Of a stretch of DNA of 27,556 nt, positions 1,431 through 27,556 are shown one piece after another. Under the pieces are notes generated by a model, which was given only the letters and a program-made list of their open reading frames with translations, made no database searches and had not been told where the DNA came from. The stretch covers positions 1 to 27,556 of IMG/VR virus record IMGVR_UViG_3300035199_001025; one strand, 5' to 3'. The stretch is from a virus. The translations under genes were made by a program, and so were the position numbers. Positions within the stretch are counted from its first letter, which is position 1, and each line of letters begins with the position of its first letter.

Positions 1431-1437
1431 CCTCGTC

Positions 1438-4020: not shown

Positions 4021-4022
4021 GT

Positions 4023-5386: not shown

Positions 5387-5992
5387 TTAGTACTCCTGAC
5401 CTTCGGCCATGGACGCAACGGTGAGCGGCCCCCCTGAATGGGCTTCGCGATCACCCTGCCCCTGCAGGTCGCTCAATGTGCGATCAAATTTTGCGGTCCA
5501 ATACTGAAAATCTTCCCGCTGAAAATACTCGCTCGCATCCGCCATGGCGCCGGCGATAATCAGATCTTCGGCGATGAGGGAGAGGGGGGTTGTGTCTGTA
5601 TCACTTGTGAAAGGAGCGCTTTCTCCGTAGTAGGAGAACACCACTTCAGCACCGTCGCGCACATAGGGACGGAACAGAAACTTGTTCTGAAACCTCGCAT
5701 AGAAGCAGGCAGACCCGGCTGTATTTTTCTTCAGAAGCTGGCTGTAGCTCACACGCTCCAGCGGTATATTGTCAATGGTAACGTCCATCATCTCCACATA
5801 ATCGGACGGAACGGGCAAAAATGTCACCGCTTCTGTCAGAACTGTCGCAAAGACACGCTCAAAAATGGGAATGCGCAGATAGCGCGAGGCGCGTGTAATC
5901 GCATCGCTGATAAAAGTATCTGCCAGCTCGTCTGTGCAGTCCGTCCGGTTCAAAATGCCGTGGAAACGCGCACGCAATTCAGCCTTATTCAT
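5387..5992 (-). CDS. Head-tail adaptor protein, SU10-like
   Basis: 201 residues from the ATG at 5992 (MNKAELRARF). The frame is open to 6040, but that extension overlaps the end of the upstream gene. The sequence has the typical adaptor layout: N-terminal helices (LADTFISDAITRASRYLRIP), a strand pair ending FLPVPSDYVEMMDV, then RVSYSQLLKK, a beta section (FLFRPYVRDGAEVVFSYYGE), and C-terminal helices (LIAEDLIIAGAMADASEYF). This matches the adaptor family that forms the dodecameric ring beneath the portal in SU10-like podoviruses. It ends in MAEGQEY, the same heptapeptide that ends the next gene, because the tail-fibre duplication reached into this 3' end. Confidence 0.8.
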   Translation of the reverse strand: MNKAELRARFHGILNRTDCTDELADTFISDAITRASRYLRIPIFERVFATVLTEAVTFLPVPSDYVEMMDVTIDNIPLERVSYSQLLKKNTAGSACFYARFQNKFLFRPYVRDGAEVVFSYYGESAPFTSDTDTTPLSLIAEDLIIAGAMADASEYFQREDFQYWTAKFDRTLSDLQGQGDREAHSGGPLTVASMAEGQEY

Positions 5993-5993
5993 G

Positions 5994-6290
5994 TCAAAGC
6001 TTCTTCTTTGTTGTGATGAAGGCATCCAGGCCTTCAGCATTTAGTTTTCGGAGAATGTCTTTTGCGGGCGCATTGTAAAAATCAAACCCCTGCGCCATCC
6101 ATTGATCGATCACGGCGACGGGTACCGACGCTGCGCGTTGATACTCCCCGCGGGCGAGAAGGCTCTCGTCCTTTTCGCGTTTAAGCTCGCGCAGGTAATC
6201 GTCAGGAATTTCCTGGGCGTAATGCACCGCCGCGTCGCCCATCGATGTGACAAGGCGGTTCTCGCTGTCGAGCAGCTTTTCATCAGACAT
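5994..6290 (-). CDS. Small conserved phage protein upstream of adaptor, function unknown
   Basis: 98 residues, charged and mostly helical. Distinctive segments are IPDDYLRELKREKDESL..RGEYQRAASVPVAVIDQW and GFDFYNAPAKDILRKLNAEGLDAFITT. I recognise this pattern from small proteins that sit next to head-tail adaptor genes in podophages, but I know no experimentally assigned function. A head-completion, internal virion or assembly role is inferred from position only. GGAG lies six bases before the ATG. The TGA stop is one base before the adaptor ATG, so the two are coupled. Confidence 0.7.
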   Translation of the reverse strand: MSDEKLLDSENRLVTSMGDAAVHYAQEIPDDYLRELKREKDESLLARGEYQRAASVPVAVIDQWMAQGFDFYNAPAKDILRKLNAEGLDAFITTKKKL

Positions 6291-8310: not shown

Positions 8311-8576
8311 CAGGACAAAGCCACAATGTCGGCAGCTGTTGTGCCGGTTGCGTTCACTCGGGCCACACGAAGGGCCAGAACGGAACCACCAATCACGCCC
8401 TTCAGCGTCACAGTGCTGCCTGCTGCCATAACAACTGACAGATCACCGCCCTTGCCCACATAAAGAGCGCGGGAAAGTGTTGCGAGGTCTGTCACGTCGG
8501 ACGGTGTCACAGCTTCTGCAGCCTCTGCCGGGTCAAGTGTGGAGCGCTTCACCCCATCATAGGTGTTCTTAGACAT
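8310..8576 (-). CDS. ghsA: Head-spike base protein, RCAP_rcc01079 family, copy 2
   Basis: 88 residues from the ATG at 8576 (MSKNTYDGVK). The open frame extends upstream to 8636, but the duplicate gene at 11270 has only this start, and both share the leader GGAACATTTTCATG. The core VTPSDVTDLATLSRALYVGK, GGDLSVVMAAGSTVTLKGV, GSVLALRVARVNATGTTAADIVAL is the signature of the spike-base family named after Rhodobacter capsulatus rcc01079, a base of the gene transfer agent head spikes. It is almost identical to the copy at 11004-11270. Its stop overlaps the fibre start, giving a base-fibre gene pair. Confidence 0.82.
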   Translation of the reverse strand: MSKNTYDGVKRSTLDPAEAAEAVTPSDVTDLATLSRALYVGKGGDLSVVMAAGSTVTLKGVIGGSVLALRVARVNATGTTAADIVALS

Positions 8577-8682
8577 GAAAATGTTCCATCTATCTGATTT
8601 GAATTGAGAGTGAGGCAAGGGTCCTTCCACCGACACGGGGTACGTGCGATGTGGACGAATGCCGGGTTAAGCTCAGACCGGC

Positions 8683-11004
8683 CTACTGCCAGTCTTCACC
8701 ATGCAACCCATTGGCTGCAGCAAAGAGAGAGATGTTTCCACCGAGTTGCTCTGTGCCCCCACCATGGCCAAGTTCAGCAAGTAGAAGCTCACTCGGCATG
8801 GTGACGCCATCGCGAGAATATTGTGCCCTGATAGAGACGTTATCAATCCAGCCGCCAGGTTGTGACCCATAGAACAAGGGACGTTGAGGGTATCCTGCAT
8901 GGTCGAAGCGAAAGGTGTTTGCACCTGTGCCTAACAATCCAAATTCATATTGCTCCGTGTAGTAGCCCACACCCGCCGCACCACCTTTTTCAACATTCAT
9001 GCTGTAGTGGAGACCTGCAATCAAAGAAGAATATGTGCTCGTTAGGAGAGCATTGTGATAGGTGGTTCCCGTGCGGTGGATACGCTGATTGGCAGCATCA
9101 TAAGCCCAGTCAGTGCCAAGGCTCCATCCGTCGACATTGCTATCAAACGTTCCATTGACAACAAGCTCAGGTCCTTCGAGGCCCTGCCCATCCGCGTTGA
9201 GCGAGAGCCTGCCCGTGTCATAATCTATCTCGCAGATGAAACTATGCTCGCCCCCATCGTCAAAGCCGGAGACGGCAACGTGCCCTTGGGCAAGGCCTGA
9301 GACAAAACTCTCAAGCCTGAAGAGGCCGGTTGCCCCTTCCCGCCAGAGTTTCACATGGCTCGTTGGATCACTCGAGACCCAGGCTTTAACCACCCGGTCA
9401 GTGCCATCGACCGGAATGTTTGTGACGTCGATCGCGGCAGTGACCTGCCGATGGTTCGTGATGCGCTTTGCCGACAAGGAAGTAGCTGTATCGGCTGCAC
9501 CACCACCGCCACCGAGTTCATCCAAGAAATAGTAAATCCGCATCTGCTCAGCGCCAGCCGGGACGATAATCTCGCCGTCCGGGGCGCTGTCGTTTGTTGA
9601 GACACCCGCTTGGTAACTAATCACCCCGCCGGAGCGCGTTTGAACCCGGCGGCGCGAGGCCGTGCCACCCAAGGCTTCTAACTTGAGACGTGAACCTGGC
9701 GTAACTGAAAACCATTCTGTCGTGCGTGTCAGGTTACCATCGTTGCTAAGGGTTTCCGACGCGCTACCACCGACAATAAATCCGGCCTCCCCTGCGCCGC
9801 CCAGCTCCGCCGACAGTTGGTCTTCCGTCAAAAAACCAGGATATGGCAGAACTTCCTTGACCGAAACCGTATCGACGATGGCAGTAGCTGCCTGCGTGCC
9901 ACTTGTAATAACCACAAACTGGAGCCGAAGGTTCGTGGTGGTGGCAATACCTTCGTATTCAACATCAATAGGTGACGTTGAGATGGTGTTGTCTGCGCCG
10001 GTGTTTCGCGCAATCGCATCAGTTAGCGCTAAACGGACTTGCTCACATGTACCACAGCGCAGGCTCCCCACCCCAATTTTGTATGTTTTTCCAACCTCCA
10101 CCGGAACATTTGCGTTGGCGTAACCATAGTTGCCACCAGCATTTTTAGTGACCACCATCTCGCCGTCAACGGCCGCGAGCGCGGATGTTTGTTCAGACCA
10201 CCCAGCGACATCTGTTTCGAAATGGCCATTCTCTAGAAGCTCACTCCCCAGCCCCTGCACCAATATTGGTCCGGCAGCTGGGCGGGTGACGGGTGACGTT
10301 GTGGTCTCAATCCACGAGCTCGCAACAGAGCCCACCTCTGCCTGGCCCTTTGTCACATAAACATTCAGCTCCGACGACAGGGGTTCATGCACATAGACCA
10401 CGGGATAGATTGGGCCACTGCCCGCATGGGTGGCTGTCACGGAGAGGCGAACAAGTTTCCCAACGAATTGCGCTGAGTTTACCGCTGTGATGTCAATAAG
10501 CGGGGATGCATCTGACCCAGTCCAATAGTAACGAATGCGTTCAGAGCCAACCAGGCCCCGGTCCAGCCCCAGATAGAGGGAATAGGTTTGAGTGGTGGCT
10601 GTGAAAGTGGCATCGTTCGCCGCGCCATCCTGCGCCAGGCGCGAACCGGCAAACAATGTGTCACTGTTCTGATCGAATGTCGCGCGCGCACAAAGCTCAC
10701 CGTCAAACAACACCGGGGAGGTAATCGTCGGAGGAGTGGTTCCTCGCCCTCCTACCGTCCCCGTGTTCATTCGAGACTGGTTCAGCAGGTTTGTCGCGGC
10801 TGGTTCAACCAGCAGCCCAGCACTTGTCAGCTCACCGCTCGGCAGGGCATCCACCAGCTCGGCAGCAGCGCCGCGGGTTTGGTTGTCTGCGTAATAGCGG
10901 CCGGTTTTGAAATCGTGATAGGTAGCAACGCCTGGAAAGCGGGCCAGCACATCTGCCAACGCCGTGCTTTGCACTTTTGTGACTGACAGTGCGGCCCCGA
11001 TCAT
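8683..11004 (-). CDS. Head-spike fibre-like protein with several carbohydrate-binding-like domains, copy 1
   Basis: 773 residues, longer than copy 2. Residues 1-55 are the shared base-binding module. Near residue 67 EPAATNLLNQSRMN starts a beta-sandwich typical of head-spike fibre domains. Around 260-395 is a segment opening ELLENGHFETDVAGW, the pattern of CBM4/9-type carbohydrate-binding modules. A LamG-like part (about 540-610) has FDDGGEHSFICEIDYDTGRLSL. A second CBM-like segment opens ELVVNGTFDSNVDGW and ends GGWIDNVSIR. Function is inferred as a capsid-surface fibre binding host polysaccharide. It follows its spike-base gene with a TGATG overlap. The C-terminal architecture is unrelated to that of copy 2 in detail, so specificity probably differs. 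Confidence 0.7.
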   Translation of the reverse strand: MIGAALSVTKVQSTALADVLARFPGVATYHDFKTGRYYADNQTRGAAAELVDALPSGELTSAGLLVEPAATNLLNQSRMNTGTVGGRGTTPPTITSPVLFDGELCARATFDQNSDTLFAGSRLAQDGAANDATFTATTQTYSLYLGLDRGLVGSERIRYYWTGSDASPLIDITAVNSAQFVGKLVRLSVTATHAGSGPIYPVVYVHEPLSSELNVYVTKGQAEVGSVASSWIETTTSPVTRPAAGPILVQGLGSELLENGHFETDVAGWSEQTSALAAVDGEMVVTKNAGGNYGYANANVPVEVGKTYKIGVGSLRCGTCEQVRLALTDAIARNTGADNTISTSPIDVEYEGIATTTNLRLQFVVITSGTQAATAIVDTVSVKEVLPYPGFLTEDQLSAELGGAGEAGFIVGGSASETLSNDGNLTRTTEWFSVTPGSRLKLEALGGTASRRRVQTRSGGVISYQAGVSTNDSAPDGEIIVPAGAEQMRIYYFLDELGGGGGAADTATSLSAKRITNHRQVTAAIDVTNIPVDGTDRVVKAWVSSDPTSHVKLWREGATGLFRLESFVSGLAQGHVAVSGFDDGGEHSFICEIDYDTGRLSLNADGQGLEGPELVVNGTFDSNVDGWSLGTDWAYDAANQRIHRTGTTYHNALLTSTYSSLIAGLHYSMNVEKGGAAGVGYYTEQYEFGLLGTGANTFRFDHAGYPQRPLFYGSQPGGWIDNVSIRAQYSRDGVTMPSELLLAELGHGGGTEQLGGNISLFAAANGLHGEDWQ

Positions 11005-11536: not shown

Positions 11537-12445
11537 TTAGCTCAGGTTCGTGATGAGGGCTGAGCCCTTCTCATTTTTGTGACGGAGCGAGAATTCGCCC
11601 ACAACCATGATGCGGGTGCTGTCACCAATCTTGGCAAGCGTCTCGCGCTGCCAGTTGCGCAGGTAGCACCGTTCCCACATGGACGGATCAAAGATCAGCG
11701 CATCGGTCGCTCGGATGAAGCGGTTGATGACAACTTTCTGCTCACCGTATGGCGAGACATACAGGTCAACAACGTTCACGAGCTTCGTCTTGCCCTGTAG
11801 GTCCCGTGTCCGGCCAGAAGCTGCACCAAAGTCCGCAATGACGCGGGCGTCGCGTGGCTTCACCATGATCACGGTTGCCTCTGAACCCTCGTCATAGAGG
11901 TTTTCATTGGCGTCGAGCAATGCAGTCTCGGTCAGTGGACCAGCCTGATCACCAGCCGTGCCAGCATCAGAGTCGATCGTGATTGTCACGTCTGCATGGA
12001 TCTGGTTTTGAACACCGGCAAACTTACGCGCCGTTGTTTTGTCACCTGCCACCATGGCCTGGCCTGTGCCCACATAGGCATGTTCCAGGTCCCGCTTCAG
12101 CTCTTTGGAGACATTGTGCAGCTGATGCGCAATTTCGCGCGCGCGGCCATATGTGTCCACTTCGTCTGAAGTTGCAGCAACGTCAATCGTGTCAGAGAGG
12201 ATCTGCGTGACGTTTTCTTTCATCTCGGTCGGCGTACGGGCCGTCGAGGCGGCGACAAAGCCTTCGACCTTGGCATTGTCTGCCACGGCGCGAAGATCTT
12301 CTTCCTGCCATTCGATCTTCTTTGCTTTGTGCTTCTTGCCTTTTACGAGCGACGTAAAGGGCGTTTTGGTCGGCGAGATGTTGGAAATAACGTCACTGAC
12401 GTCTTCCTTAATGCCAACCTGTTCATAGGTAGAGAACTGAGTCAT
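11537..12445 (-). CDS. Major capsid protein, SU10 major head protein family
   Basis: 302 residues, the usual size for this HK97-fold family (often annotated DUF5309 or SU10 major head protein). Recognisable blocks are the N-terminal MTQFSTYEQVGIKEDVSDVI, the SPTKTPFTSLV element, EWQEEDLR, the central helix EIAHQLHNVSKELKRDLEHA, RKFAGVQNQI, and the domain with MVKPRDARVIADFGAASGR, LYVSPYGEQKVVINRFI and FDPSMWERCYLRNW. It follows the scaffold gene, as expected for capsid assembly. AAGG lies nine bases before the ATG. No separate protease gene is visible between portal and capsid genes. The long upstream gap holds a chromosomal-type repeat. Confidence 0.88.
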   Translation of the reverse strand: MTQFSTYEQVGIKEDVSDVISNISPTKTPFTSLVKGKKHKAKKIEWQEEDLRAVADNAKVEGFVAASTARTPTEMKENVTQILSDTIDVAATSDEVDTYGRAREIAHQLHNVSKELKRDLEHAYVGTGQAMVAGDKTTARKFAGVQNQIHADVTITIDSDAGTAGDQAGPLTETALLDANENLYDEGSEATVIMVKPRDARVIADFGAASGRTRDLQGKTKLVNVVDLYVSPYGEQKVVINRFIRATDALIFDPSMWERCYLRNWQRETLAKIGDSTRIMVVGEFSLRHKNEKGSALITNLS

Positions 12446-13997: not shown

Positions 13998-15680
13998 GTG
14001 AGTTTAGATAGGGGAACATTTGAAATTATGGTTGGTATATCCAAGCGACATGCGGCTATCGCACTGGCTGGCATCGCCTCTATCGCGATTGTATTTTTCG
14101 CTTTGCAATACAGTTCCGAGAGAGATCCATTTCTCCAAATCTCTTCAGATTGTCGCAAGGCCCCAACATCAACATGTCTGGTGGATTTGGGAGTCGGGCA
14201 GCTTCGTCAGAAAGACAGCACGCTCGATAGCGATCTCAATCTCCCAATCGACTATCTCATCACGATGAACCGGATAGAAGATGCGCAGATACTCATCTTT
14301 CGAAACGCGGTAGAGCGCGGACTCCCGACGGGAAGTGCGGAGGAACAAGCAAACACCCGTGTTGCTTCCGCCCGCCTTGCCCGCTCTATCCGCCAAGGAA
14401 CAAGCCTCGACCAGGCAATGGTGGAGCAGCCCAACATCGACCAGATGGCCCTAAGCATCGCAGCGCAACACCTGGTCGGCCAGACCAGGTTTGGGGCGTT
14501 TCGTGGCCCTGACTATCCAGTGAACGAAAACCTGACCAATCTCGCAAAGCAGATGGCAGCTAAGATTGTGGAAATGGACCCAAATGCGCGTGCTGGACCT
14601 CGGGCCTACTATCTCTCTCTTGCAGCGGGCGTTGAAGTTGTCCTTGGTGACAGAGAAGCTGCAATAAATTACCTGCAACAGATCCCGGGAAGGCAGGAAA
14701 CCATCAACGGCTACTCCAAGGAAATGGTTCGCTCTCTTGGCGCTGAAACAGCCCTGCAATTCATGCGTGACACAGGCACCCCCTCGCCGGAGTTTCTTTT
14801 CATCCTTGCCTCCGTCGAGAAAGACCCAGCCCGTGTGCGCGATCACCTGACCGAGGCTTTTCAGCGCTTCGCTACTGAGTGGACGCGGCCCCATTATCAG
14901 TGGATGGCGGTAACCATCTCTGCGTGTATCGCCTTAAATCAGCGGGAATTGGGCTTGTCACTAGCGCAGCAAACGCAGGATATGGCAAAGGCGGAGGGAG
15001 AAGACCTTCTCTTTTTCGACCACCTTTATGTCATTGACGCCCTTGTGGCCGCAGGAGCACCCATTGATGAAATCCGCGAAAACCTCAACGGCGTGAAGGA
15101 CAAATTGCCTGCTGGTCCCCAAGCCTCTTCCGACCCGAACCCGGTTCCTGGCTACACTTACTGGTTTGAGTCACATCTTGATGGTCAGGCCCGCCGTCAC
15201 ATAGCGCGTATTCATGCAAAGCTCGGCGATGTCGAGGAGGCGAAGAACATCGCATATGGGTTTCCACCCTTCACACACGGCAATCCATCCGCGCTGGTTC
15301 TTTGGCTTGAAAGCCTAGAGCCAGGTGTCTCGGTGGAACATCTCAATCGCCTTTTCGTGGCTGCTCGCGGGGGCCTGTCAGATGCTGATGTAGCCTATGT
15401 GAAGGCACGCATGGCGTCCCTCATCATCGCGCATTCTCGCAACGAACCCGCGCGGGAATGGGCAATGAAAGCGGCGACGGACCTTTTGGCCGAGCCCCTG
15501 ATGGCAGGGGCCAATGCGGCAAATGCCTATGGAGAACTTGTTGAGCTTGCAACACACGCCGAAGACCTTGCGATAAGACAGATCGCCATCGACAGGCTCA
15601 CAGCGGCTGCTTTTCACTCACGGGATGGACAAGATCTCATCCGGGCGGGGTTTGAGCACAACCGTCAGGACAATAGCTAG
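13998..15680 (+). CDS. Membrane-anchored TPR-like helical-repeat protein, first gene of cargo operon
   Basis: 560 residues from a GTG at 13998. A shorter form from ATG 14028 (MVGISKRHAA, 550 residues) is at least as likely, with AGGGGAA some way upstream. One N-terminal membrane segment (AAIALAGIASIAIVFFAL) follows positive residues, predicting a short cytoplasmic tail and a periplasmic body. The body is made of TPR-like helix pairs. Examples are GDREAAINYLQQIPGRQ, IALNQRELGLSLAQQTQDMA, HIARIHAKLGDVEEAKNIAY and WAMKAATDLLAEPLM. A Cys pair (DCRKAPTSTC) follows the anchor. There is no enzyme motif. It is oriented against all phage structural genes and lies 42 bp before the GGDEF gene. A sensor or scaffold role is inference. 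I do not recognise a named family. Confidence 0.75.
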   Translation: MSLDRGTFEIMVGISKRHAAIALAGIASIAIVFFALQYSSERDPFLQISSDCRKAPTSTCLVDLGVGQLRQKDSTLDSDLNLPIDYLITMNRIEDAQILIFRNAVERGLPTGSAEEQANTRVASARLARSIRQGTSLDQAMVEQPNIDQMALSIAAQHLVGQTRFGAFRGPDYPVNENLTNLAKQMAAKIVEMDPNARAGPRAYYLSLAAGVEVVLGDREAAINYLQQIPGRQETINGYSKEMVRSLGAETALQFMRDTGTPSPEFLFILASVEKDPARVRDHLTEAFQRFATEWTRPHYQWMAVTISACIALNQRELGLSLAQQTQDMAKAEGEDLLFFDHLYVIDALVAAGAPIDEIRENLNGVKDKLPAGPQASSDPNPVPGYTYWFESHLDGQARRHIARIHAKLGDVEEAKNIAYGFPPFTHGNPSALVLWLESLEPGVSVEHLNRLFVAARGGLSDADVAYVKARMASLIIAHSRNEPAREWAMKAATDLLAEPLMAGANAANAYGELVELATHAEDLAIRQIAIDRLTAAAFHSRDGQDLIRAGFEHNRQDNS

Positions 15681-15722
15681 GGCGCTATTTCTCCCAGCAC
15701 CGATGCTAGCCGACGCGGCAGC

Positions 15723-18125
15723 TTGCAACTATTGCCTGACTGGGAAAACAGACTTGCACAAGCCCTCCTAAAAGGTACTGTGGAATACTCATTTTATGGA
15801 AGTATTCGTATGAATTTAGCCAGATTTGATTGCGTCATAAAAGAACTTGATGGCGATGAAACTCTAATTTCTTCGACAGAAGGGTGGCAGGTGTTTCGCC
15901 TCTTTAAGGGCACGTGGCTCCCACTGGAAGGTGATCCTTTAGTTGATCCGATGACTACTCTAAATCTGAAGAAGTGTCTGGATAATACTGCTTTTTGGAA
16001 GCACCCAAAGTCTAAACAAGCGTTCTTCTCCTTACCTGGGTTTGATGCCGTTCTAGTCGCGCAGTTTGACAAAAACCCCCGTAGCCAAACGAGAAGACGC
16101 ATCGAAAAATGCATCGAATCTTGTCTCTCCGTAGGAGAGAATACGTTCAAGGCAAATTTCAACGAACTGACGAGCCAGTTGAAACGGGAACCTTTTGACA
16201 AGCTTTTGGAGGAGACGATAGCGGGATTCATAACAGACAGGCAAAAATCCCGTGAAGAGGAATCTGGCTCAATCCAGCAAGACAGTAAATCTTCGCCACC
16301 TGCATTAGTTGCATTCGATTTGGATCACTTCAAGCAGGTGAATGATACATTCGGGCATCAATACGGTGACCTCGTATTGCAAGCTTTGGCGAAACGCGTT
16401 GACGAGCTATGTTCAGACTACAACACGAAATGGGCCGATGTATCTCGCGTCACTCCCGCTCATCCGAGCGGTGAAGAGTTCATGATTTTAATCTCTGGCA
16501 AAGTCGGCGGCGAAGCGGTCGAGGAGTTTTCCCAGAACCTAAAAGGCATAATATCGCAGGACCCACTACCCAATAACAATGAGTGGGAAGAGATGTCCGA
16601 AAAGAGAGTTCCAAAAGGAACTCCGCTACCTGACCACTCCCAGCGGGCAATCACCGTTAGTATTGGATATGCTTTTGTTCGAAATGACATTCCAGATGGC
16701 GAAGTTAGTGGCGAGACAAAGGCTATTAAGGATAGAGCTGACATCGCTGTTTACACAGCAAAAAATGCAGGGCGTAATTGTGTCGTGCCTTTTGCAAACA
16801 TCGTCCGTGATTTTGGTCAAGTTCTAGAACACCAAACATCAGCAGGTGTCGTTGCGATCGACATCGGAAAGAAAGTCGGGGTGCAAATTGGCCAAGAATT
16901 CATCGTGCGCCATCCACTTTTCACCGGGGACCGACCATTTATCTCCGGGGACGGTAGGTCGCAAAAACGCCTGGGCATGTACCCAAAAAGAGCCTTGGCA
17001 AGCATTGTAGTTTTCGCTGTGGAACCAGAAGTATCTTTTTGCATTCTATCAGGAGAGCGAAAAGACATCGATATCCCCGTCGGTGCAAAGCTCGAGGCTC
17101 TTACACTTGGGAACATCGCTCACCTCGTGGACGAGGCCTTGGGGACACCAAACCGAAATTCGCAAGACCGCTCCGAAATAGAAAACTTTCTGGCAGATCG
17201 CACATCCGATAACCGAGCCTGTGGCGCCGTCATCGAACTAACGAATTCAGAATCTCTTTCCAACGATTATGGGCAAGGCTATGTAAATAGGCTGCTGGCC
17301 GAAATATTCGAAATTCTCAGGAATGAACTTCGAGGAGCAATCGTCGAACACATCCCCCCTACAGAGTTTGGGGTTGCATGGGGTAGTGAAAGTTCTTCAT
17401 CCGAAGCCTACAACTTCATTGATATCGTAGAGAAAATCTCCAACAGAAGCCAAGGAAAAGCTAAAATCAGAGTTGGCGTCTTCGATCCAAAAATTCTACT
17501 TGAAGGTATTGCGAATAATCCCGACACTGAATTTACGCCATCTGGCGATGGGCGCGGAGCAGTGAAACTAGCGCGTCTGGCACGTGACGAAGCAGCCCAA
17601 GCCGATAAAAATGTCAGATACTTTTCCCGAGATACAGCTCTTGCGGTCCTTGTGTTTTCTCGACAATCGGAAGACTTCACCAAATCTGAAACTGATTATG
17701 CCGTGGTGACGGAATTTGGTTCTGTAGGCGGCTGGGTCGAAAATCAACTTGCCCTAATCCGCTACGAACAAGACCTTTGGGACTCCGCAAGGGAAGCAAT
17801 TGATCGAGCACGCGAAAAACTGCCGGATGATTCTGTTGTTATCCTAAATTCCGCGAGTATCTACAATGAGCAAGAAGATAATGATGGAATGGTATCGGAG
17901 TTGATTGCCCTTGGAGAACTGGAGGGGGATGCCAATATTCCTTCGGTTTACGGGGAAGATTTGGTTCCCAAAATCTGCATGCTTGTTCGCAACGGGATGG
18001 ACCCACAAAAAATTCCGGGAGATGTGCTCAAGACAATGCTGAACCAGTATCTAAAACAACCAGAAGACCACAAAACCGAGGCCGTATCAGCCTTAGCCCA
18101 GGCTTTGCTAATTGACCCACAATAG
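15723..18125 (+). CDS. GGDEF (SGEEF) diguanylate cyclase-like protein with degenerate second cyclase-like domain and TPR tail
   Basis: 800 residues from TTG 15723. ATG 15810 has the clearest ribosome binding site (GGAAG, seven bases before), and GTG 15780 is also possible. No membrane segment. The unknown N-terminal region spans 1-190. A GGDEF domain (about 194-355) has FDLDHFKQVND (metal Asp199, Asn207), GHQYGDLVLQALAKRV, signature SGEEF (249-253), VSIGYA and ADIAVYTAKNAGRN. No RxxD inhibitory site precedes the signature. A beta-rich domain (about 372-462: AIDIGKKVGVQIGQEFIV, PVGAKLEAL) recalls FlgT C-terminal-like folds. Residues 498-640 mirror the cyclase layout without its catalytic motif (PPTEF instead of GGDEF). 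The end (670-800) is TPR-like. It looks more AT-rich than the preceding gene. c-di-GMP or another nucleotide product is inferred. Confidence 0.8.
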   Translation: MQLLPDWENRLAQALLKGTVEYSFYGSIRMNLARFDCVIKELDGDETLISSTEGWQVFRLFKGTWLPLEGDPLVDPMTTLNLKKCLDNTAFWKHPKSKQAFFSLPGFDAVLVAQFDKNPRSQTRRRIEKCIESCLSVGENTFKANFNELTSQLKREPFDKLLEETIAGFITDRQKSREEESGSIQQDSKSSPPALVAFDLDHFKQVNDTFGHQYGDLVLQALAKRVDELCSDYNTKWADVSRVTPAHPSGEEFMILISGKVGGEAVEEFSQNLKGIISQDPLPNNNEWEEMSEKRVPKGTPLPDHSQRAITVSIGYAFVRNDIPDGEVSGETKAIKDRADIAVYTAKNAGRNCVVPFANIVRDFGQVLEHQTSAGVVAIDIGKKVGVQIGQEFIVRHPLFTGDRPFISGDGRSQKRLGMYPKRALASIVVFAVEPEVSFCILSGERKDIDIPVGAKLEALTLGNIAHLVDEALGTPNRNSQDRSEIENFLADRTSDNRACGAVIELTNSESLSNDYGQGYVNRLLAEIFEILRNELRGAIVEHIPPTEFGVAWGSESSSSEAYNFIDIVEKISNRSQGKAKIRVGVFDPKILLEGIANNPDTEFTPSGDGRGAVKLARLARDEAAQADKNVRYFSRDTALAVLVFSRQSEDFTKSETDYAVVTEFGSVGGWVENQLALIRYEQDLWDSAREAIDRAREKLPDDSVVILNSASIYNEQEDNDGMVSELIALGELEGDANIPSVYGEDLVPKICMLVRNGMDPQKIPGDVLKTMLNQYLKQPEDHKTEAVSALAQALLIDPQ

Positions 18126-20368: not shown

Positions 20369-20415
20369 CGAGAGGCCCAATGGATCCCGCATCAAGTGCG
20401 GGATGACAGCAGAGG
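20369..20415. repeat. 47 bp direct repeat with palindrome, copy 1
   Basis: It begins CGAGAGGCCCAATGGATCCC and is identical over 47 bases to 20578-20624. The core ATCCCGCA-TCAAG-TGCGGGAT is a perfect 8 bp inverted repeat with a five-base loop. This is the look of a REP-type intergenic element. Confidence 0.8.
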
Positions 20416-20523
20416 GTGGATCTACCGCTCCTATGAGGAATGGCACGGCTGTTCGGCCTGTTAACCTCTGTTAGCTTTTTGTCTGCGTTTTGGCCTCTGC
20501 ATTTCTTCCAAACAAAAGCTGTC

Positions 20524-20556
20524 ACCCCGGACGCCAAGACATTGGCGAGCCGGGGT
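20524..20556. repeat. Nested REP-like palindrome
   Basis: ACCCCGG (20524-20530) pairs with CCGGGGT (20550-20556), and inside it GCCAA (20533-20537) pairs with TTGGC (20542-20546). The flank CTTCCAAACAAAAGCTGTCA (from 20505) recurs with one change before the palindrome at 24363, so both are members of one repeat family. Confidence 0.65.
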
Positions 20557-20577
20557 CCATTCTGAAGCTGAACTATT

Positions 20578-20624
20578 CGAGAGGCCCAATGGATCCCGCA
20601 TCAAGTGCGGGATGACAGCAGAGG
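20578..20624. repeat. 47 bp direct repeat with palindrome, copy 2
   Basis: Identical to 20369-20415. It ends seven bases before the portal stop codon triplet, so it lies right at the portal gene's 3' edge. Confidence 0.8.
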
Positions 20625-20630: not shown

Positions 20631-22658
20631 TCACCCGTTGGGCGAAACCACAAAGCGCAGGTTCTCTTCCGGCGTCTGAAGACCCAGTGCCATTTCTTCG
20701 CGCGCAATGGCGTAGGAATTATCCGCCTTTTCCTGTTCCAGGTCGTGCTTGTCCGCACGAAGCGCATGGTCGGCCTCGGCGGTCGCCCGCTTCAGCGCAA
20801 GCTCTGCCTGCCAGGACTGTTCGCGGAACGCATGTTCGCGCTCCTTCAGGTCCAGTTCGCGTTCGCGAAGCTCGATCTGTTTTGCCATGACCTGCTTTTG
20901 CATTTCGGTTTCCGGGTTGGGGCCGCGCGGTTTCACATTGCGCGGGTTCTCGATATAGGTATCGATGTCCTCAATCTCGGTTGCCTGGGCCATGCGGCGC
21001 ACGGTCTCATAGCGCTTGTTCATGGGATAAAGAGACTTCAGTTCAGGGTCACTCGTCAGGAACTGATCCAGCGCCATATATTTCTGAACTTCCTTGTCCT
21101 TCTCGCCATAACCCAAATTGAACTCAACAGAGGCGTCTTTGCGGGCCTTCCACGTGGTGGGGTTTACCTCCACCCAATTATTGGCCACCTCAAACACCTG
21201 TTCGCCAGAGAAGTTCTCCAGCGTCAGCTCATAAATACGCAGGAACATTTTGCGCAGGAACATCTGAGCGAAGTTCCGGGCAATTACCTTCTGGCGTACC
21301 TGCGAAACATTGATGAGATTCTCCACCATGCCGGCAGAGTTCTGCGAAGACAGCGCGTCCTTGTTCAGCCCCTGTGACAGGCGGCTAATGCCTGTTGTCT
21401 CTTCCTTATCGTCATCCAGCATTGCAACGGTCTGGAAGACAAACGGGTTGAGGCTTGCCTGGATCAAGGGCGCAATCGCGTCCTGGCGCTTAATGTTGAC
21501 GATGCCGCCAATGCGATTTTCCATCAGCTCGCGCGGATTGGCAAGTCCGCCATTCAAGACCGTGTAGCGCGGATTGTTGGTAATCATCGCATGGTCAATG
21601 ATGGAGCGTGTCAGCAGGGTACGCGCGTTCTGGGTTGGGAACACCCGCTTAGCGTAAGAACTACCCCAGAAACGGTGCGGCACCGGAAGCGGCGCCCAGT
21701 CGATGAAGGGGGTGCGTTCGACTTCTTCTTTGTCGAGAATGTGCCCGCCAGAATAGAACAACTTACAAAGCTTCGCCCGGCCATCATTATTGATGTCAAT
21801 CTGGGTGTAGCACTCATAGATGGTATATTTGCGGGTCGCTTCCTGCATGGAGTCTGAGAGATCAGTGGAGGTGGAATAGCCCTCGCCTGTATCTTCGTGG
21901 CGGGCGTCGCGCAGCTCCTCATCATAGTAGGAGGTTTCATCCGCTGCGGTAAGCAGAGCAAGCTTTGCTTCCTCGATCCCCATGTCGCGCAATTCGCTTT
22001 TGGACTTCAGACACCGCTGCCAGGTGATGTCGGCACTCTCAATGGAGACAGCGCGTTCAGAAATACCAAAGTCCTCATTGGGAATAATCTCAATATTGAT
22101 CTTGTCGTTCTTGCGCTTCACCCGCACCGTGCCGGAATATAGCCCTGTGGCTTCGTCCAGCTCAACATCCAGCTCTCTTACCTTTTCATTGGCATAAAGC
22201 TGTTCAATGGCTTCGGTCGGCAGGCCTTCAATTTCGTGTTCTTCTTCTTCGCATTCCTGCTCGTACCAGACTTTCGCAACACCATTGCGGAACATCAGGC
22301 CATTGTGAACAGCGTCACGAATAATGTGGAAGCCGTCATTCATGCGGTGGAACACATATTGGCTCCACTCGCTGGCAATGCGGGCTGCTTCTACATCGTC
22401 TGCATTTTCCGGTTTGAAATAGGCCCCGCGCTTGTGGGCTGAGAAGGTTTCCAATATCTGGGCCTTCATGCTTTCAACCGCGTCAAACACGTCTTGAGAC
22501 ACATATTTGGAATTGCCCTTATGAAGGGGCTTCGGGCTTTCTCCATCATAGAAGCGTTGGGTCTCTGCCCGTTCGCGTTCCAGTGTGTTGTCCCGCAACC
22601 CACTTGTAAGGTCCAGCCGGCTTTTCACCAGGGCTGCAATATCCTCATCACGGAGCAT
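20631..22658 (-). CDS. Portal protein, SU10-like podovirus type
   Basis: About 675 residues from ATG 22658 (MLRDEDIAALVKSRLDLTSG), four bases after the TerL stop. A longer form from ATG 22688 would overlap TerL and adds ten residues. Portal features are RAETQRFYDGE near the start, KYVSQDVFDAVESMKAQILE and DAVHNGLMFRNGVAKVWYE. Further on are PFIDWAPLPVPHRFWGSSYA, RTLLTRSIIDHAMITNNPRY, the NPFVFQTVAMLDDDKEETTG/LSQGLN stretch and QVRQKVIARNFAQMFLRKMF. The C-terminal roughly 70 residues are a strongly charged coiled coil (KQIELRERELDLKEREHAF). It forms the dodecameric DNA channel at the capsid vertex and docks TerL. It is coupled to terL. Confidence 0.88.
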   Translation of the reverse strand: MLRDEDIAALVKSRLDLTSGLRDNTLERERAETQRFYDGESPKPLHKGNSKYVSQDVFDAVESMKAQILETFSAHKRGAYFKPENADDVEAARIASEWSQYVFHRMNDGFHIIRDAVHNGLMFRNGVAKVWYEQECEEEEHEIEGLPTEAIEQLYANEKVRELDVELDEATGLYSGTVRVKRKNDKINIEIIPNEDFGISERAVSIESADITWQRCLKSKSELRDMGIEEAKLALLTAADETSYYDEELRDARHEDTGEGYSTSTDLSDSMQEATRKYTIYECYTQIDINNDGRAKLCKLFYSGGHILDKEEVERTPFIDWAPLPVPHRFWGSSYAKRVFPTQNARTLLTRSIIDHAMITNNPRYTVLNGGLANPRELMENRIGGIVNIKRQDAIAPLIQASLNPFVFQTVAMLDDDKEETTGISRLSQGLNKDALSSQNSAGMVENLINVSQVRQKVIARNFAQMFLRKMFLRIYELTLENFSGEQVFEVANNWVEVNPTTWKARKDASVEFNLGYGEKDKEVQKYMALDQFLTSDPELKSLYPMNKRYETVRRMAQATEIEDIDTYIENPRNVKPRGPNPETEMQKQVMAKQIELRERELDLKEREHAFREQSWQAELALKRATAEADHALRADKHDLEQEKADNSYAIAREEMALGLQTPEENLRFVVSPNG

Positions 22659-22662
22659 CTTT

Positions 22663-24252
22663 TTAGACCTGCTCGACATACCATTCATCCATGTTTGTTA
22701 TTGGCTCGACATAGCCTTCGTTGATGTGATTGGCGAGAGCCAACGCGATAACGGTGTCGTCGTGACATGCCGCGTCTGCCTCCATACGTCCCTCTTCGGT
22801 GACGATGTAGGTCATCAGTTCTCGAATTGTTGTTTCATCATCAAGCGCAATCTCCTCTTCGCGCAAACTGGCGCGGAGCTCGTCAATGATCAAAGGTTTG
22901 GTTTTTACGTTCACGGAGAAACCAAGCTTCACCGTTTCCTGCTGGGTCAGTCGGTCTATCTGCATTTCGGTATAGAAATTGGGATAGCCCAAATCCTTGC
23001 CCAGGCGGGAACATGTGAGGATGCCGTGATTATTGCTCTCCACAATGATCCGCGCTTCATTATAGAGGTGGCCCAGCGCATTCAACACTTGAGCAAAATA
23101 GTCCGGGTGCACGTGGGCACGGTAGGTGGCGACAACGCGCTTGCGACTGTCCATCACTTGGGCAACGGAATAGTCACCGCCGCGCACCCCCATCGCCACA
23201 TCTGCGCCAATGTAATAGGTCTCAGCGGGGTCATGCTCTGCGTAACAAGCCAGATCGCCGCGAATGTCTTTTTCAAAGGCAAAGCCCCCTGCCTCACTAC
23301 CCACCAGCGCCATGCGGGTGAGCGGTGCTTTGCGGGCTTCCATCTTGGTCACCAGGCGCTCTGGGATAAACACCGGGCGGCCGGTCGTCAGAAACGCTTC
23401 ATCGGGCATGGTGGGATATTCCTGTCTTGTCAGGTCCAGACCGTTCAAGGCAATCTTGTTGCGTCGCCACACCAATTGCTCCTGGTCGAGCCCGTATTTT
23501 TCAACAAGCAGGCTTTCTTCCGGCGCCACTTCAATGCCGGCATCTGGCACTTGCGTTCGATATTCGTCGCTCATGTACCAGGGAATGAAGACCGGCAAAA
23601 AACCGTTCGTGCCTTCCACCGCCCCTTTCCAGATATTGTAAAAGAGGCCGGCCACGCCGTTGGCTGTGCTTTCAATAAAGATGGATGTGCCCGGCGCATT
23701 GGGCACGGCCTGCTCCAGCCCGTTCCAATTGTCAGCGGCCTGGTTTGGTTTCCAGAAAGCCAGTTCTGAGACATGCAGGTCTGTCAGGGTTTCCCCGCGG
23801 CCCACACTGTCCCCGCCCGATGTCGCAACAATGTAAGAACTGTCGAGCCCCGCCAATGACAATTCCCGGCGGGAGGAATATTTGGACTGGGGCTTCAAGA
23901 CATCAGGCAGATTTTCATAATAGCGTTTGGTCATATCAAACAGCGCTCGGGTGCTGTCTGCATGGTGGGTAATCACCATGGCCCGGCGGGCTTTCTGCTG
24001 AGCCACACGCCAGATCATCCGGCCGCCTACATAGGTGGACATGCCCTGCTGGCGGCCTTTCAAAATGATGACGCGGATCTTACCCGTCTTCGCCTGCTGT
24101 TTTTCAATCGCGGCGTGCAGTTTGAGCTGGGCATCGTTGAAGCGCAGCTTCTCAAACGTGCCGGCCTTGGTTCGAATTTGAAGCGCGTGTTCAGCGTAAT
24201 AGCGATAGTCATCGCGCAGGCGCTTGCGGACCGCAAACAAGCGATCATCCAT
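22663..24252 (-). CDS. terL: Terminase large subunit (packaging ATPase and nuclease)
   Basis: 529 residues from ATG 24252 (MDDRLFAVRK), with AGGAG eight bases upstream. The upstream open frame to 24483 is non-coding repeat DNA. The ATPase has a terminase-type Walker A, GRQQGMST (66-73), and Walker B, LTDLHVSELAFW with catalytic Glu163, followed by the ESTANG coupling motif (194-199). The RNase H-like nuclease has its acidic residues in YYIGADVAMG (Asp351), RIIVESNNHG (Glu405) and CHDDTVIALA (Asp498/499). It packages DNA into proheads by docking on the portal, whose gene follows at once. No small terminase subunit gene is recognisable in the window. Confidence 0.93.
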   Translation of the reverse strand: MDDRLFAVRKRLRDDYRYYAEHALQIRTKAGTFEKLRFNDAQLKLHAAIEKQQAKTGKIRVIILKGRQQGMSTYVGGRMIWRVAQQKARRAMVITHHADSTRALFDMTKRYYENLPDVLKPQSKYSSRRELSLAGLDSSYIVATSGGDSVGRGETLTDLHVSELAFWKPNQAADNWNGLEQAVPNAPGTSIFIESTANGVAGLFYNIWKGAVEGTNGFLPVFIPWYMSDEYRTQVPDAGIEVAPEESLLVEKYGLDQEQLVWRRNKIALNGLDLTRQEYPTMPDEAFLTTGRPVFIPERLVTKMEARKAPLTRMALVGSEAGGFAFEKDIRGDLACYAEHDPAETYYIGADVAMGVRGGDYSVAQVMDSRKRVVATYRAHVHPDYFAQVLNALGHLYNEARIIVESNNHGILTCSRLGKDLGYPNFYTEMQIDRLTQQETVKLGFSVNVKTKPLIIDELRASLREEEIALDDETTIRELMTYIVTEEGRMEADAACHDDTVIALALANHINEGYVEPITNMDEWYVEQV

Positions 24253-24342
24253 GGACGTCTCCTTGTTTGTGGGGATGGTGTGGGTGCGAATGAGGCGAGC
24301 AGCGCCAGGGTGCGTCGCCCTTCGGCTCGTCACGCAAGCGTA

Positions 24343-24440
24343 CTTCCAAACAGAAGCTGTCACCCCGGATTCAGTCCGGGGTCTATCCTGCCTATGAGAG
24401 TGACGAAAGAGCCTATGTATCCCGCATCCAATGCGTCTAG
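24343..24440. repeat. REP-like repeat cluster, degenerate relative of the portal-side cluster
   Basis: CTTCCAAACAGAAGCTGTCA (24343) matches 20505 with one difference. Then CCCCGGA-TTCAG-TCCGGGG (24363-24381) is a perfect 7 bp palindrome. GCCTATGTATCCCGCATCCA near 24411 is a decayed version of the 47 bp repeat core. The order of the parts is the same as at 20505-20624. Confidence 0.6.
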
Positions 24441-24506
24441 TTACAACAGCACGTTCACCTTGAATTTTCTCTGCATTTTGCATATGTAGAAACTGAAGCT
24501 CTGTTC

Positions 24507-24549
24507 GCCAATAACTGCCCTGTCTTCAGGGTGGGGTTTTGGTATTGGC
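24507..24549. other. Nested stem-loop of unknown role
   Basis: GCCAATA (24507-24513) pairs exactly with TATTGGC (24543-24549). Inside it CCCTG (24518-24522) and CAGGG (24527-24531) close a four-base loop (TCTT). It could be a structured leader RNA, a binding site or chance in GC-rich DNA. No known RNA family was recognised. Confidence 0.3.
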
Positions 24550-24761
24550 GCTCCCTGCCCTTGGCACTCGGTTCCTGGCGTACGCAGGAGGTGGATGAGG
24601 GGTTTCTCCGGTTGCAGCGTACCGACTAGCTGTATTGGGGGTCGCGCTCCCCTTCAGGGCTTCATTCCTTTTCTCAATGTGAGTTGGGATTAGGGCGGAC
24701 ATTTCCGCAGCCTGTTCGACACTCCAAGCTCTTATCACTCGGTTCTTCGAAAGGTTCGTTC

Positions 24762-25178
24762 GTGTTCAACTTCTTAAAAAAATTCTTCTCGTTTGAGCCT
24801 CGCAGGCACCGGCCATACACCCCTCTCCCGGGACAATATCTTTGTGTGTCTCCGAGAAACTGCGACGAGGATGATCCAGAAGGATGCTTTCAAGGCTATG
24901 ATGGTCTCAGGACGGAAAATCAAGAACCTGTTATGTCAAGTGAATTTCTCATCAGTGAAGAGCTCACTGCACAGTTCCGCGTATGGAGCAGAGACGTTCT
25001 TAAGTTTGAAGACGACCACGTAGATCCTGATAATCCTGACTGGTCAGTTCTTGAAACTGCTGACTATTCAGCACTTGACCAACGCGGGTTAGAACTCGCA
25101 CAGGCACTCAAGCGGGAACTCCCCCATTGCGAGGTTCACTATGGGTCCTCACAAAACGAAGACCATATTTGCAATTAG
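24762..25178 (+). CDS. Immunity-like protein, single-module paralogue (GTG start)
   Basis: 138 residues from GTG 24762 (FNFLKKFFSFEPR). AAAGG lies seven bases upstream, and the whole leader is repeated before the next gene. The amphipathic N-terminus precedes one module at about 57-130: LISEELTAQFRVWSRDVLKF, then PDW, SALDQRGLELAQALKRELPH and EVHYGS. The pattern of a Trp helix, then G.ELA..L..EL, then V.Y is one I associate with small acidic hypothetical proteins often next to toxin genes. Immunity is an inference; no toxin partner lies in the immediate vicinity. The next gene, 47 bp downstream, is a longer paralogue. Confidence 0.65.
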   Translation: MFNFLKKFFSFEPRRHRPYTPLPGQYLCVSPRNCDEDDPEGCFQGYDGLRTENQEPVMSSEFLISEELTAQFRVWSRDVLKFEDDHVDPDNPDWSVLETADYSALDQRGLELAQALKRELPHCEVHYGSSQNEDHICN

Positions 25179-25225
25179 TCGTCTTTTAGAATTTTTCCAC
25201 TGTCAGCTCTTCGAAAGGTTCGTTC

Positions 25226-25978
25226 GTGTTCAACTTCCTCAAAAAGCTCTTCTCGTTTGAGCCCCGCAAGCAACTGCCCTACAGGGACGTTCTCTCAGGA
25301 AAATACCTTCGTGTAACGATGTTGTGGTGCTTGGGCGATGATCCGAAAGGGCTACGCCGAGGCTGTGATGGTATCTGCAGCGACTATGAAAGCCCTGTCA
25401 TGACAAATGCCATTCCCATCAGTGAGGAGCTCACTACAGAATTTCGCAAATGGCGAGGAGACGTTCTTGAGTTCAAAGACGATTGCGTAGATTCTGATAA
25501 CCCTGACTGGTCAGTTCTTGACACCGCTGATTGGTCAGCACTTGAACAACGAGGACTGGAACTCGCACAAACTCTGCAGCGCGAACTCCCTCATTTCGAC
25601 GTTAAATATCGTTCGCGGGAAACGGAGCACGCCCTTGCTATAACGAGTTTTGTGATGTGGGTCTCACCGGAATATTGCTATGCCGATGATGATCGCGGCA
25701 CTGGTGCAGACGGGCCTGTGGATGGGATTTGTGCCGATGCTGGTGGCTTCATCCCCACGCGGGCATTACCCATTAGCGATGAGCTTTCTGAGAAATTCCA
25801 TGCATGGAAAATGGACGTCGTAAAGTTAAGGGAAAGCACAGATTCTGAGACTGCTGATTGGTCAGCGCTTGATCAACGGGGGTTGGAGCTCGCAAAAGCA
25901 CTAAAGCGTGAACTTCCCCATGAGGATGTTCGGTATGAGTCTTCACAGGATAAGGTTCATATCTTTGAGCACCACTAA
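25226..25978 (+). CDS. Immunity-like protein, two-module paralogue (GTG start)
   Basis: 250 residues from GTG 25226, with the same ribosome binding site and leader as the preceding gene. It contains the module twice. The first is at about 63-128 (IPISEELTTEFRKWRGDVLE, DWSALEQRGLELAQTLQREL). The second is at about 181-239 (LPISDELSEKFHAWKMDVVK, DWSALDQRGLELAKALKREL). The first half matches the whole 138-residue paralogue. The second half lacks the FNFLKK amphipathic start, so it arose by internal duplication or fusion. There is no catalytic motif. It is probably a cytoplasmic binding protein; a two-headed immunity or anti-toxin protein is possible but unproven. Confidence 0.65.
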   Translation: MFNFLKKLFSFEPRKQLPYRDVLSGKYLRVTMLWCLGDDPKGLRRGCDGICSDYESPVMTNAIPISEELTTEFRKWRGDVLEFKDDCVDSDNPDWSVLDTADWSALEQRGLELAQTLQRELPHFDVKYRSRETEHALAITSFVMWVSPEYCYADDDRGTGADGPVDGICADAGGFIPTRALPISDELSEKFHAWKMDVVKLRESTDSETADWSALDQRGLELAKALKRELPHEDVRYESSQDKVHIFEHH

Positions 25979-26256
25979 TCTTTATACATATCTATTTCGA
26001 TAAACCTAAAAATCATCGACATCGACATGCTGGAACACACGCGCCCTCTCAGGCAGGAGTATGCATCTGAAATGGTGGTGTGCGCCCCTGCTGGGGCAGC
26101 CACTAAAAATTCGCCATTTTCGTATTAAGTCAAAGGCGGTTCCGCTCCCAGCCCGATGTCCCAAATGGGGGGTGTTTGGCTGCGTAGAGCATGTGGTGTT
26201 AATGCATCCGTGTCTCCCCGGAACCACCTCGCCCTCCTTCGAAAGGCGCATTGCGA

Positions 26257-26330
26257 TTAGTCACCCTTTAGAAGTTTCCCGCCGTTCAATAGGCCCGTCG
26301 GGCCTTTGACGCAGTACTCAATCAATGAGC
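26257..26330 (-). pseudogene. Relic C-terminus of the gene at the right edge
   Basis: The minus strand reads SSLIEYCVKGPTGLLNGGKL, then LKGD and stop (TAA 26259-26257). The intact gene at the right edge ends SHDLIERCVKGPTGLLDGLK and stop. The relic lies just downstream of the HNH gene and has no start of its own. It looks like a 3' end left behind, or carried along, when the HNH gene was inserted. Confidence 0.65.
26281..26324. repeat. 44 bp direct repeat flanking the HNH gene, copy 1
   Basis: GCCGTTCAATAGGCCCGTCG and onward matches 27451-27494 at 40 of 44 positions. It contains the palindrome AGGCCCG-T-CGGGCCT. The sequence is protein-coding in copy 2 (IERCVKGPTGLLDG). The two copies lie exactly 1170 bp apart. 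Confidence 0.8.
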
Positions 26331-26349
26331 TTATTGGTTATCTTGCAGA

Positions 26350-27318
26350 TCACTTTTTTGGAAACCGTTGCAGGCGAGAAACTCGCTCAATCACACTCCT
26401 AGCCAGCTTCTTTCTGTCCTTTCCATGGTGCAATTCCCGATGACAGTTGGGACATGCTGCAATGGCATTTGCAATGGTATCAGGCCCACCTTCCGCCAAT
26501 GGACGAACGTGATGTACTTCCAGGAATGGTCTTCCATCCTCTCTCGCAAATGGTGCGTTCGTGACGCACACTTCACACGCACCATCTGCTGTGTCCAAAA
26601 CCCAGGCTGTAACTTCCGGGTCGCGGACAAATCGCGCTGAAGTTGAGCTCACTCTCTCAACATTCTTGGTACCTGTTGGGGGGACTTTCCTGTTGGAGGA
26701 TTCCTTTGAACGCGCTGAAGAAACTCGCGCCTCAAACGCTTCTGGGTCAGCAGTAGGAGACTCTCTTTGCCCCTCCCGTCCCCAGACTTCGTTAATCAGA
26801 AAAATTAGGGTCTCTTTTGCAGAACCAATGTTCCGAAGTGGCTTGTACCCGTCGAGGGTTTCAAGCCCGAGGTCAATCAGAACAGACGAAATGTTCTGCA
26901 TGCGAAACTCGTAGGCTCCGTCATTTCTGCCGCTTAACTCGAATTCACGAACCCGCCGACGTACTTCTGTCTTATTTGCTTCTTCTCCTCGCCTTTCCAT
27001 CCCAAGCAACTCAAAGTAAGCAACGACACATGCGCGAAGTTCTTCACTTGACCACTTCTCTCCGGAGCGATCTTCCTTTTGTCGGGTGAACCTAACAACC
27101 CGTTCTCCCTGATGCAATTTGGCTGAAAATCCATTGTCCATCCATTGCCGACGACGGGTCAGATGATGATTTTTTACATTTGCCCAGAACTGAAGGGTCA
27201 TTGCCTCGGGAGGAAGCTTTCCGACCAGCTTTTCCAACTGGCTCCATGAAAGGTTTACCTCATCATCAACCGTTGCTCTTAGAAATTCTCCTAAGGGATC
27301 ATACTTTAAGCCAGCCAT
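26350..27318 (-). CDS. McrA-like HNH restriction endonuclease
   Basis: 322 residues from ATG 27318 (MAGLKYDPLG), with AAGGG eight bases upstream. A GTG at 27336 is less likely. The N-terminal domain (about 5-80: YDPLGEFLRA, LSWSQLEKLVGKLPPEA, WMDNGF) is of a type often joined to restriction nucleases. The middle domain (about 88-165: KWSSEELRACVVAYFELLGM, NISSVLIDLGLETLDGYKP) is also typical of HNH enzymes. The C-terminal HNH has CEVC (248-251), EVHHVRPLAEGG, Asn284, CPNCH (289-293) and HH (297-298), so the zinc Cys and catalytic His are intact. Likely a stand-alone nuclease against modified or foreign DNA; no methylase adjoins it. Repeats flank it, suggesting transfer. Confidence 0.8.
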   Translation of the reverse strand: MAGLKYDPLGEFLRATVDDEVNLSWSQLEKLVGKLPPEAMTLQFWANVKNHHLTRRRQWMDNGFSAKLHQGERVVRFTRQKEDRSGEKWSSEELRACVVAYFELLGMERRGEEANKTEVRRRVREFELSGRNDGAYEFRMQNISSVLIDLGLETLDGYKPLRNIGSAKETLIFLINEVWGREGQRESPTADPEAFEARVSSARSKESSNRKVPPTGTKNVERVSSTSARFVRDPEVTAWVLDTADGACEVCVTNAPFAREDGRPFLEVHHVRPLAEGGPDTIANAIAACPNCHRELHHGKDRKKLARSVIERVSRLQRFPKK

Positions 27319-27441
27319 ACCGTACCCTTCGTTCACCCGTTACGCATCACCTGGACTTGGGCCTTAGCGACACCGACAGGCACAAGGACCGTCAGAAAGG
27401 AAAGACAGCCTCGTACGGACATTGAGATAAAACCGTCAGCC

Positions 27442-27556
27442 TCATTTCAGGCCGTCCAACAGGCCCGTCGGGCCTTTGACGCAGCGCTCAATCAGGTCGT
27501 GACTGGAGGACGCATTCGACAGGCTTTCAAAATAGGCAACACCATCTGCACCAGTT
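27442..27556 (-). CDS. Unknown protein, C-terminal 37 residues only (partial)
   Basis: The minus strand is open from the window edge to a TGA at 27444-27442. It ends YFESLSNASSSHDLIERCVK followed by GPTGLLDGLK. A near-copy of this ending occurs as a relic at 26330-26257, and an even shorter trace may exist at 25198-25176. The conserved repetition of the protein-level ending supports that it is truly coding. Too little is visible for a function. Confidence 0.5.
   Translation of the reverse strand, partial: TGADGVAYFESLSNASSSHDLIERCVKGPTGLLDGLK
27451..27494. repeat. 44 bp direct repeat flanking the HNH gene, copy 2
   Basis: GCCGTCCAACAGGCCCGTCG and onward; partner of 26281-26324, with four differences. 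It forms the codons of the C-terminus of the partial gene at the right edge. Confidence 0.8.

What the first reader, a model, noticed from the sequence alone, without database searches (positions are those of the whole stretch)
26257..27494. HNH nuclease gene bracketed by a 44 bp repeat that is a protein C-terminus
Seen: the last codons of the right-edge gene recur, 40 of 44 bases, just past the HNH gene, and remain readable as IEYCVKGPTGLLNG. The copies contain the palindrome AGGCCCG-T-CGGGCCT. Possible causes: an insertion that regenerates the target gene's 3' end, as integrating elements do, or homologous replacement that left the old end behind. Either makes a 1.17 kb restriction cassette with defined borders.
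Basis: partly seen in the sequence, partly recalled or inferred. Interest (0 to 1): 0.6.

Follow-up and report, generated by a model that had tools for sequence, protein, structure and literature searches.

The report
Restriction gene between duplicated gene ends
In an incomplete phage-like DNA record, a gene resembling a known bacterial DNA-cutting defence enzyme sits between two diverged copies of a 50-base sequence, probably a scar from when the gene was captured; this is a plausible but unproven example of a known kind of event.

Summary
A 50-base block (26275-26324 and 27445-27494, 44 of 50 identical, sharply bounded, not chance) brackets a 322-codon minus-strand HNH gene, and both copies hold the 7-1-7 palindrome. 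In the right copy the block ends at the stop codon of a 37-codon open frame that runs off the record's end. The HNH protein is an McrA-like type IV restriction candidate: DUF7662, a middle domain, and an HNH part closest to EcoKMcrA.

How the block was doubled is not settled. My best reading is capture of the gene at another gene's 3' end, the incoming DNA bringing its own copy of that end, as the mcrA-bearing prophage e14 does at icd. Against it: no integrase, no empty site and no relative of the edge gene were found, and 0 of 14 HNH relatives have such a repeat. The block is also nearly coextensive with a hairpin, so a doubled terminator or REP-like element is a live rival. An independent locus shows that this gene kind is optional cargo: present in 1 of 45 genomes of a genus, with nearly empty sites in 4 and a different nuclease-like gene in 1. 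Interest is modest.

The parts
27445..27494 (-). right copy of the 50-base block; encodes the last 16 codons (IERCVKGPTGLLDGLK) before the stop codon of the edge frame
26275..26324 (-). left copy of the block (88%); frame still open (IEYCVKGPTGLLNGGK, then LLKGD and a stop that ends at 26257), no gene body upstream of it
27461..27475 (.). palindrome AGGCCCG-T-CGGGCCT, right copy
   Evidence: fold
26291..26305 (.). palindrome AGGCCCG-T-CGGGCCT, left copy
   Evidence: fold
27442..27556 (-). 3' end (37 codons and stop) of an unidentified gene cut by the end of the record
26350..27318 (-). HNH gene, 322 aa from the ATG (328 aa from a GTG at 27336): DUF7662 (residues 6-78), middle domain (86-226), McrA-like HNH part (about 179-318)

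Best explanation
Shown: an McrA-like HNH restriction gene lies, with about 150 bases of spacer in all, between two diverged copies of a 50-base sequence, and the right copy is the end of an open reading frame up to its stop codon. Inferred: the HNH gene is accessory cargo (a moron) that entered at the 3' end of the edge gene. The incoming DNA carried its own diverged version of that end (right copy), so the edge gene stayed whole, and the old end was left behind as a remnant (left copy). The e14 prophage, which carries mcrA, does this at icd. The join could have been made by an integrase now lost or encoded elsewhere, or by ordinary homologous recombination within the shared end; the sequence does not tell these apart. 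The encoded protein is inferred to cut incoming DNA that carries modified bases, the N-terminal part reading the modification and the HNH part cutting.
For: Sharp 50-base homology block that ends at the stop codon of the edge frame. Codon score of the edge frame is gene-like. Same orientation, and frame open in both copies. HNH protein: Pfam HNH and DUF7662, PADLOC mREase_IV 2e-31, EcoKMcrA 6ghc 3e-31 over residues 179-318, Foldseek matches to 6ghc and ScoMcrA 5zmm at low TM-scores. This gene kind is optional cargo elsewhere: present in 1 of 45 genomes of the genus of G002. Of the 6 genomes there in which both flanks align at one place, 1 has the HNH gene, 4 have gaps of 1 to 57 bases, and 1 has about 1.07 kb with a PLD-domain ORF instead. 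Precedent: passages of PMC6379469 and PMC4444293 on e14, icd and icdC, and passages of PMC10111431 on att identity blocks at gene ends.
Against: 0 of 14 HNH relatives have a comparable flanking repeat. No integrase in the 20 ORFs scanned; the unit is only 1.17 kb. No empty site and no relative of the edge gene found. The left copy lacks the stop codon at the same place. The block nearly coincides with a hairpin, which a repeat or terminator element would also give. At the G002 locus the gene is cargo without such repeats, so a repeat is not needed for its gain.
Confidence: 0.42

Rival explanations
1. The block is a small dispersed hairpin element (terminator or REP-like palindrome) that sits behind both the edge gene and the HNH gene, and the readable protein end is incidental.
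For: The block is about 10 + 37 + 3 bases around an imperfect hairpin; as minus-strand RNA it folds at z -2.9 (left, 1 of 200 shuffles as good) and z -2.0 (right, 7 of 200). The left copy lies 25 bases behind the HNH stop codon. The window holds another REP-like palindrome family (20369-20415, 20578-20624).
Against: Only two copies in the window. No exact copy of the 23-base core in viral contigs or genome contigs, and none of a 19-base core with one free base in viral contigs. No T-run directly after the palindrome on either strand, and the terminator scan did not call it; it called a different hairpin, 27454-27437, over the stop codon. The right copy is in a frame that scores as coding.
Confidence: 0.3
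2. Remnant of a tandem duplication: the edge gene was doubled, and the HNH gene replaced the body of one copy, leaving its end.
For: The 27.6 kb window is rich in duplications (12 direct-repeat families, among them 24893-25147/25360-25614 and 8147-8446/10841-11140).
Against: No similarity between the two copies beyond the 50 bases on either side, so both flanks of the duplicate would have had to be lost exactly there.
Confidence: 0.15
3. Att sites of tandemly integrated elements: the phage to the left and an HNH-bearing remnant both entered at the same gene end, with a third copy of the block beyond the left end of the record.
For: Same anatomy as the best explanation; prophage-like structural genes lie to the left (SU10-type portal, capsid, adaptor).
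Against: No third copy in the window; no integrase found.
Confidence: 0.08
4. Template and variable repeat of a diversity-generating retroelement, or an integron attC pair.
For: A gene's end repeated nearby next to a GC-rich hairpin.
Against: Mismatches are not adenine-specific (alignment, read directly); no reverse transcriptase or integron integrase in the 20 ORFs scanned. By eye I saw no matching pair of attC core boxes; that motif is recalled.
Confidence: 0.02

Closest known systems
E. coli e14 prophage (mcrA) at icd / icdC
   Same: McrA-type HNH restriction gene in an element with a duplicated, diverged 3' end of a protein gene, reading frame kept (passages of PMC6379469 and PMC4444293)
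   Different: e14 is about 15 kb with an integrase and a 163-base duplicated end in a known gene; here 1.17 kb, 50 bases, no integrase, unknown gene
EcoKMcrA (6ghc) and ScoMcrA (5zmm), type IV HNH restriction enzymes
   Same: C-terminal HNH part; cysteines and HNH-core His/Asn invariant among 9 aligned relatives
   Different: N-terminal part differs: DUF7662 plus a middle domain (PADLOC PDC-S36 profile); substrate unknown
Integrative elements whose att identity block is a gene's 3' end (fis, icd; PMC10111431, passages)
   Same: short homology block that reaches a stop codon; replacement sequence keeps the gene whole
   Different: no integrase and no mapped empty site here

Membership tests
McrA-like type IV HNH restriction endonuclease | McrA-type C-terminal HNH domain | tested here: met
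   cysteines and HNH core invariant in 9 of 9
McrA-like type IV HNH restriction endonuclease | cuts or restricts only modified DNA | not testable with these tools
   needs an assay
McrA-like type IV HNH restriction endonuclease | known modification-reading N-terminal domain | tested here: inconclusive
   DUF7662 in 2 of 9 aligned proteins, other or no N-terminal part in the rest; model pTM 0.46
Integrative element with att sites at a gene's 3' end (e14/icd type) | direct repeat whose one copy is the gene's 3' end | tested here: met
   that the frame is a gene is inferred
Integrative element with att sites at a gene's 3' end (e14/icd type) | integrase gene in the element | tested here: not met
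   the HNH gene fills the space between the copies; none in 20 window ORFs scanned
Integrative element with att sites at a gene's 3' end (e14/icd type) | empty site in a relative | tested here: inconclusive
   no relative of the edge gene found: 0 of 385, 0 of 61, none in viral contigs
REP-like or terminator repeat | many dispersed copies | tested here: inconclusive
   two in the window; none elsewhere by exact core, but the host genome is not at hand
Diversity-generating retroelement | adenine-specific mismatches and a reverse transcriptase | tested here: not met
   (20 ORFs scanned)

The most novel reading that the evidence does not exclude
A single-gene restriction cassette that spreads without its own integrase by carrying, at its border, a diverged copy of a target gene's 3' end. 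Recombination in that end would swap the cassette in while keeping the target gene whole: a minimal e14-like module.
Probability: 0.1. Interest if true: 0.55.

Novelty: new member of a known kind. Interest (0 to 1): 0.3.

Why it matters
If the capture reading is right, it is a very small example of how prophages gain defence genes at a gene end without breaking the gene. The HNH protein adds an N-terminal domain of unknown function to the McrA-like enzymes. The related tail-gene site, where one genome holds this HNH gene kind, another a PLD-domain gene and four nearly nothing, suggests exchange of nuclease-like cargo there.

Tried and rejected
Chance match: rejected. Retroelement template/variable repeat and integron attC: disfavoured (see rivals). 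Coding on the plus strand of the right copy: a frame is open, but its codon score is lower (2.7 against 7.0), and its peptide had only two hits, at E 6 and 8, in plasmids. RNA families: none. tRNA att site: no tRNA. Phage DNA relatives of 24400-27556: none. Plasmid DNA relatives of 26200-27556: three, within the HNH gene only. Relatives of the terL gene: 22 viral loci, and 7 of 385 genomes at E 1e-30. Neither the edge peptide (best E 1.2) nor an HNH relative was found in the 22 viral loci, and G215 has other genes upstream of terL. Host search by a REP-like 30-mer: 1 of 385 genomes, 1 copy; its family (0 of 13, DNA of 24250-27556) and order (0 of 27, HNH protein at E 1e-40) gave nothing. HNH protein in the class: 2 of 385 at E 1e-30, one of them G002 itself. 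The structure model of the HNH protein is of middling quality (pTM 0.46), and low TM-scores go with its fold hits.

Full report
What the record is. The window is the whole of a virus record of 27,556 bases; a search of its own assembly finds only itself. Structural genes are SU10-type: portal 20631-22688, adaptor 5387-6040 and major capsid protein 11537-12445. Terminase profiles match 22663-24483 only weakly, but tblastn with 22663-24255 finds annotated terminase genes in phages, best Roseobacter phage CRP-7 at 38%. This protein is 58-62% identical to that of the nearest seven viral contigs and 63% to that of one genome of an alphaproteobacterial class, G215. In G215 and in the viral loci I read (L004, L005, L006, L008, L010), further genes on the same strand lie directly upstream of terL. 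In the window this place holds REP-like palindromes, two duplicated plus-strand ORFs, the HNH gene and the edge frame. I infer a rearranged prophage in an alphaproteobacterial chromosome; this is not shown.

The repeat. Copies at 26275-26324 and 27445-27494 agree in 44 of 50 positions, with 24 in a row identical. Outside the block identity is at background. The two flanks of the HNH gene score 38 against at most 14 in 100 resampled pairs. Both copies have the palindrome. As minus-strand RNA the left copy folds at z -2.9 and the right at z -2.0, so the block is nearly a hairpin with short tails. The terminator scan did not call either palindrome.

The edge frame. On the minus strand the right copy is the end of a 37-codon open frame with its stop codon at 27442-27444. 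Its codon score is 6.9 bits: 43% of 587 in-frame stretches score no higher, and 2.1% of 828 open off-frame stretches score as high. The plus strand of the same interval scores 2.7. I take it as probably a gene. No relative was found: phages gave one hit at E 7, plasmids none, alphaproteobacterial-class genomes 0 of 385, family of G215 0 of 61, viral contigs 0 confirmed of 40 pattern matches. A short peptide is a weak probe, so these blanks show little.

The HNH gene. Residues 6-78 match DUF7662 and 248-298 HNH. Residues 86-226 match PADLOC profile PDC-S36 and 184-318 mREase_IV. NCBIfam gives only hits below its cut-offs. EcoKMcrA is the best solved relative, over 179-318, and the predicted model finds EcoKMcrA and ScoMcrA first, at low TM-scores. 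Nine aligned proteins share four cysteines and the HNH core; DUF7662 is in 2 of 9, and others have another N-terminal part or none. That the two McrA enzymes share only the nuclease part and differ in the N-terminus is also in a passage of PMC3874153.

Is the repeat part of the cassette? I compared up to 1.5 kb on either side of the HNH gene in 14 relatives (L002, L003, L026-L031, L043-L048). None has a flanking direct repeat like the window's; long, low-identity alignments in L027 and L044 are the only ones at E 0.001 or below. L028 has only about 40 bases on one side. So the repeat belongs to this site, not to the gene family.

Is the gene kind cargo? In the genus of G002 the HNH gene occurs in 1 of 45 genomes. 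With 4.2 kb around it as query, 21 of 45 genomes match at all. In 6 both flanks align at one place: G002 with the HNH gene; G486, G481, G496 and G479 with 1, 57, 30 and 38 bases between the flank matches; and G473, 92-93% identical in the flanks, with about 1.07 kb holding a PLD-domain ORF. The neighbours are a DUF2793 gene and a tail gene with an Rcc01698_C domain, so this is a gene-transfer-agent-like or prophage tail region (inference). PADLOC matches of the PLD protein are weak (best E 0.015). Other relatives lie next to a CI repressor (Vibrio phage L9-1) and between a DNA invertase and tail fibre genes (Escherichia phage vB_EcoM-689R6).

Weighing. The block ends at a stop codon, keeps the frame in both copies, and brackets an McrA-like gene; this is the e14/icd pattern (passages of PMC6379469 and PMC4444293; passages of PMC10111431 on identity blocks at gene ends). 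The lack of an integrase, the tiny size, the missing empty site and the hairpin keep this below one half. A doubled hairpin element is the main rival.

Limits. The right end of the record cuts the key gene. Own or near-identical records may be left out of collection scans, as the tools say. I made no literature search for this precise anatomy beyond.

Noticed in passing
window 13998-18125 (+): A TPR-like ORF (560 aa) and an 800-aa ORF with a GGDEF domain lie on the opposite strand inside the structural gene cluster, in a segment of about 6.7 kb between portal and the next shared gene that L004, L006, L007 and G215 lack.
   Followed up: partly
window 20369-20624 and 24343-24489: REP-like palindromes (one 47-base unit twice, 100% identical) beside portal and terL; an exact 30-base piece occurs once in 1 of 385 genomes of an alphaproteobacterial class.
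   Followed up: partly
window 24684-25178 and 25226-25978 (+): Tandemly duplicated gene of unknown family with its upstream region also duplicated; a third partial copy lies inside the second ORF. No relatives in viral contigs.
   Followed up: partly
window 42-5384 and 6355-11004 (-): Repeated duplication among tail-fibre-like genes: a 289-base unit four times, two collagen/Peptidase_S74 genes, two long paralogous ORFs.
   Followed up: no
L027 5884-6726; L072: Cargo site between a DUF2793 gene and an Rcc01698-like tail gene: HNH in G002, a PLD-domain ORF in G473, nearly nothing in four congeners.
   Followed up: partly
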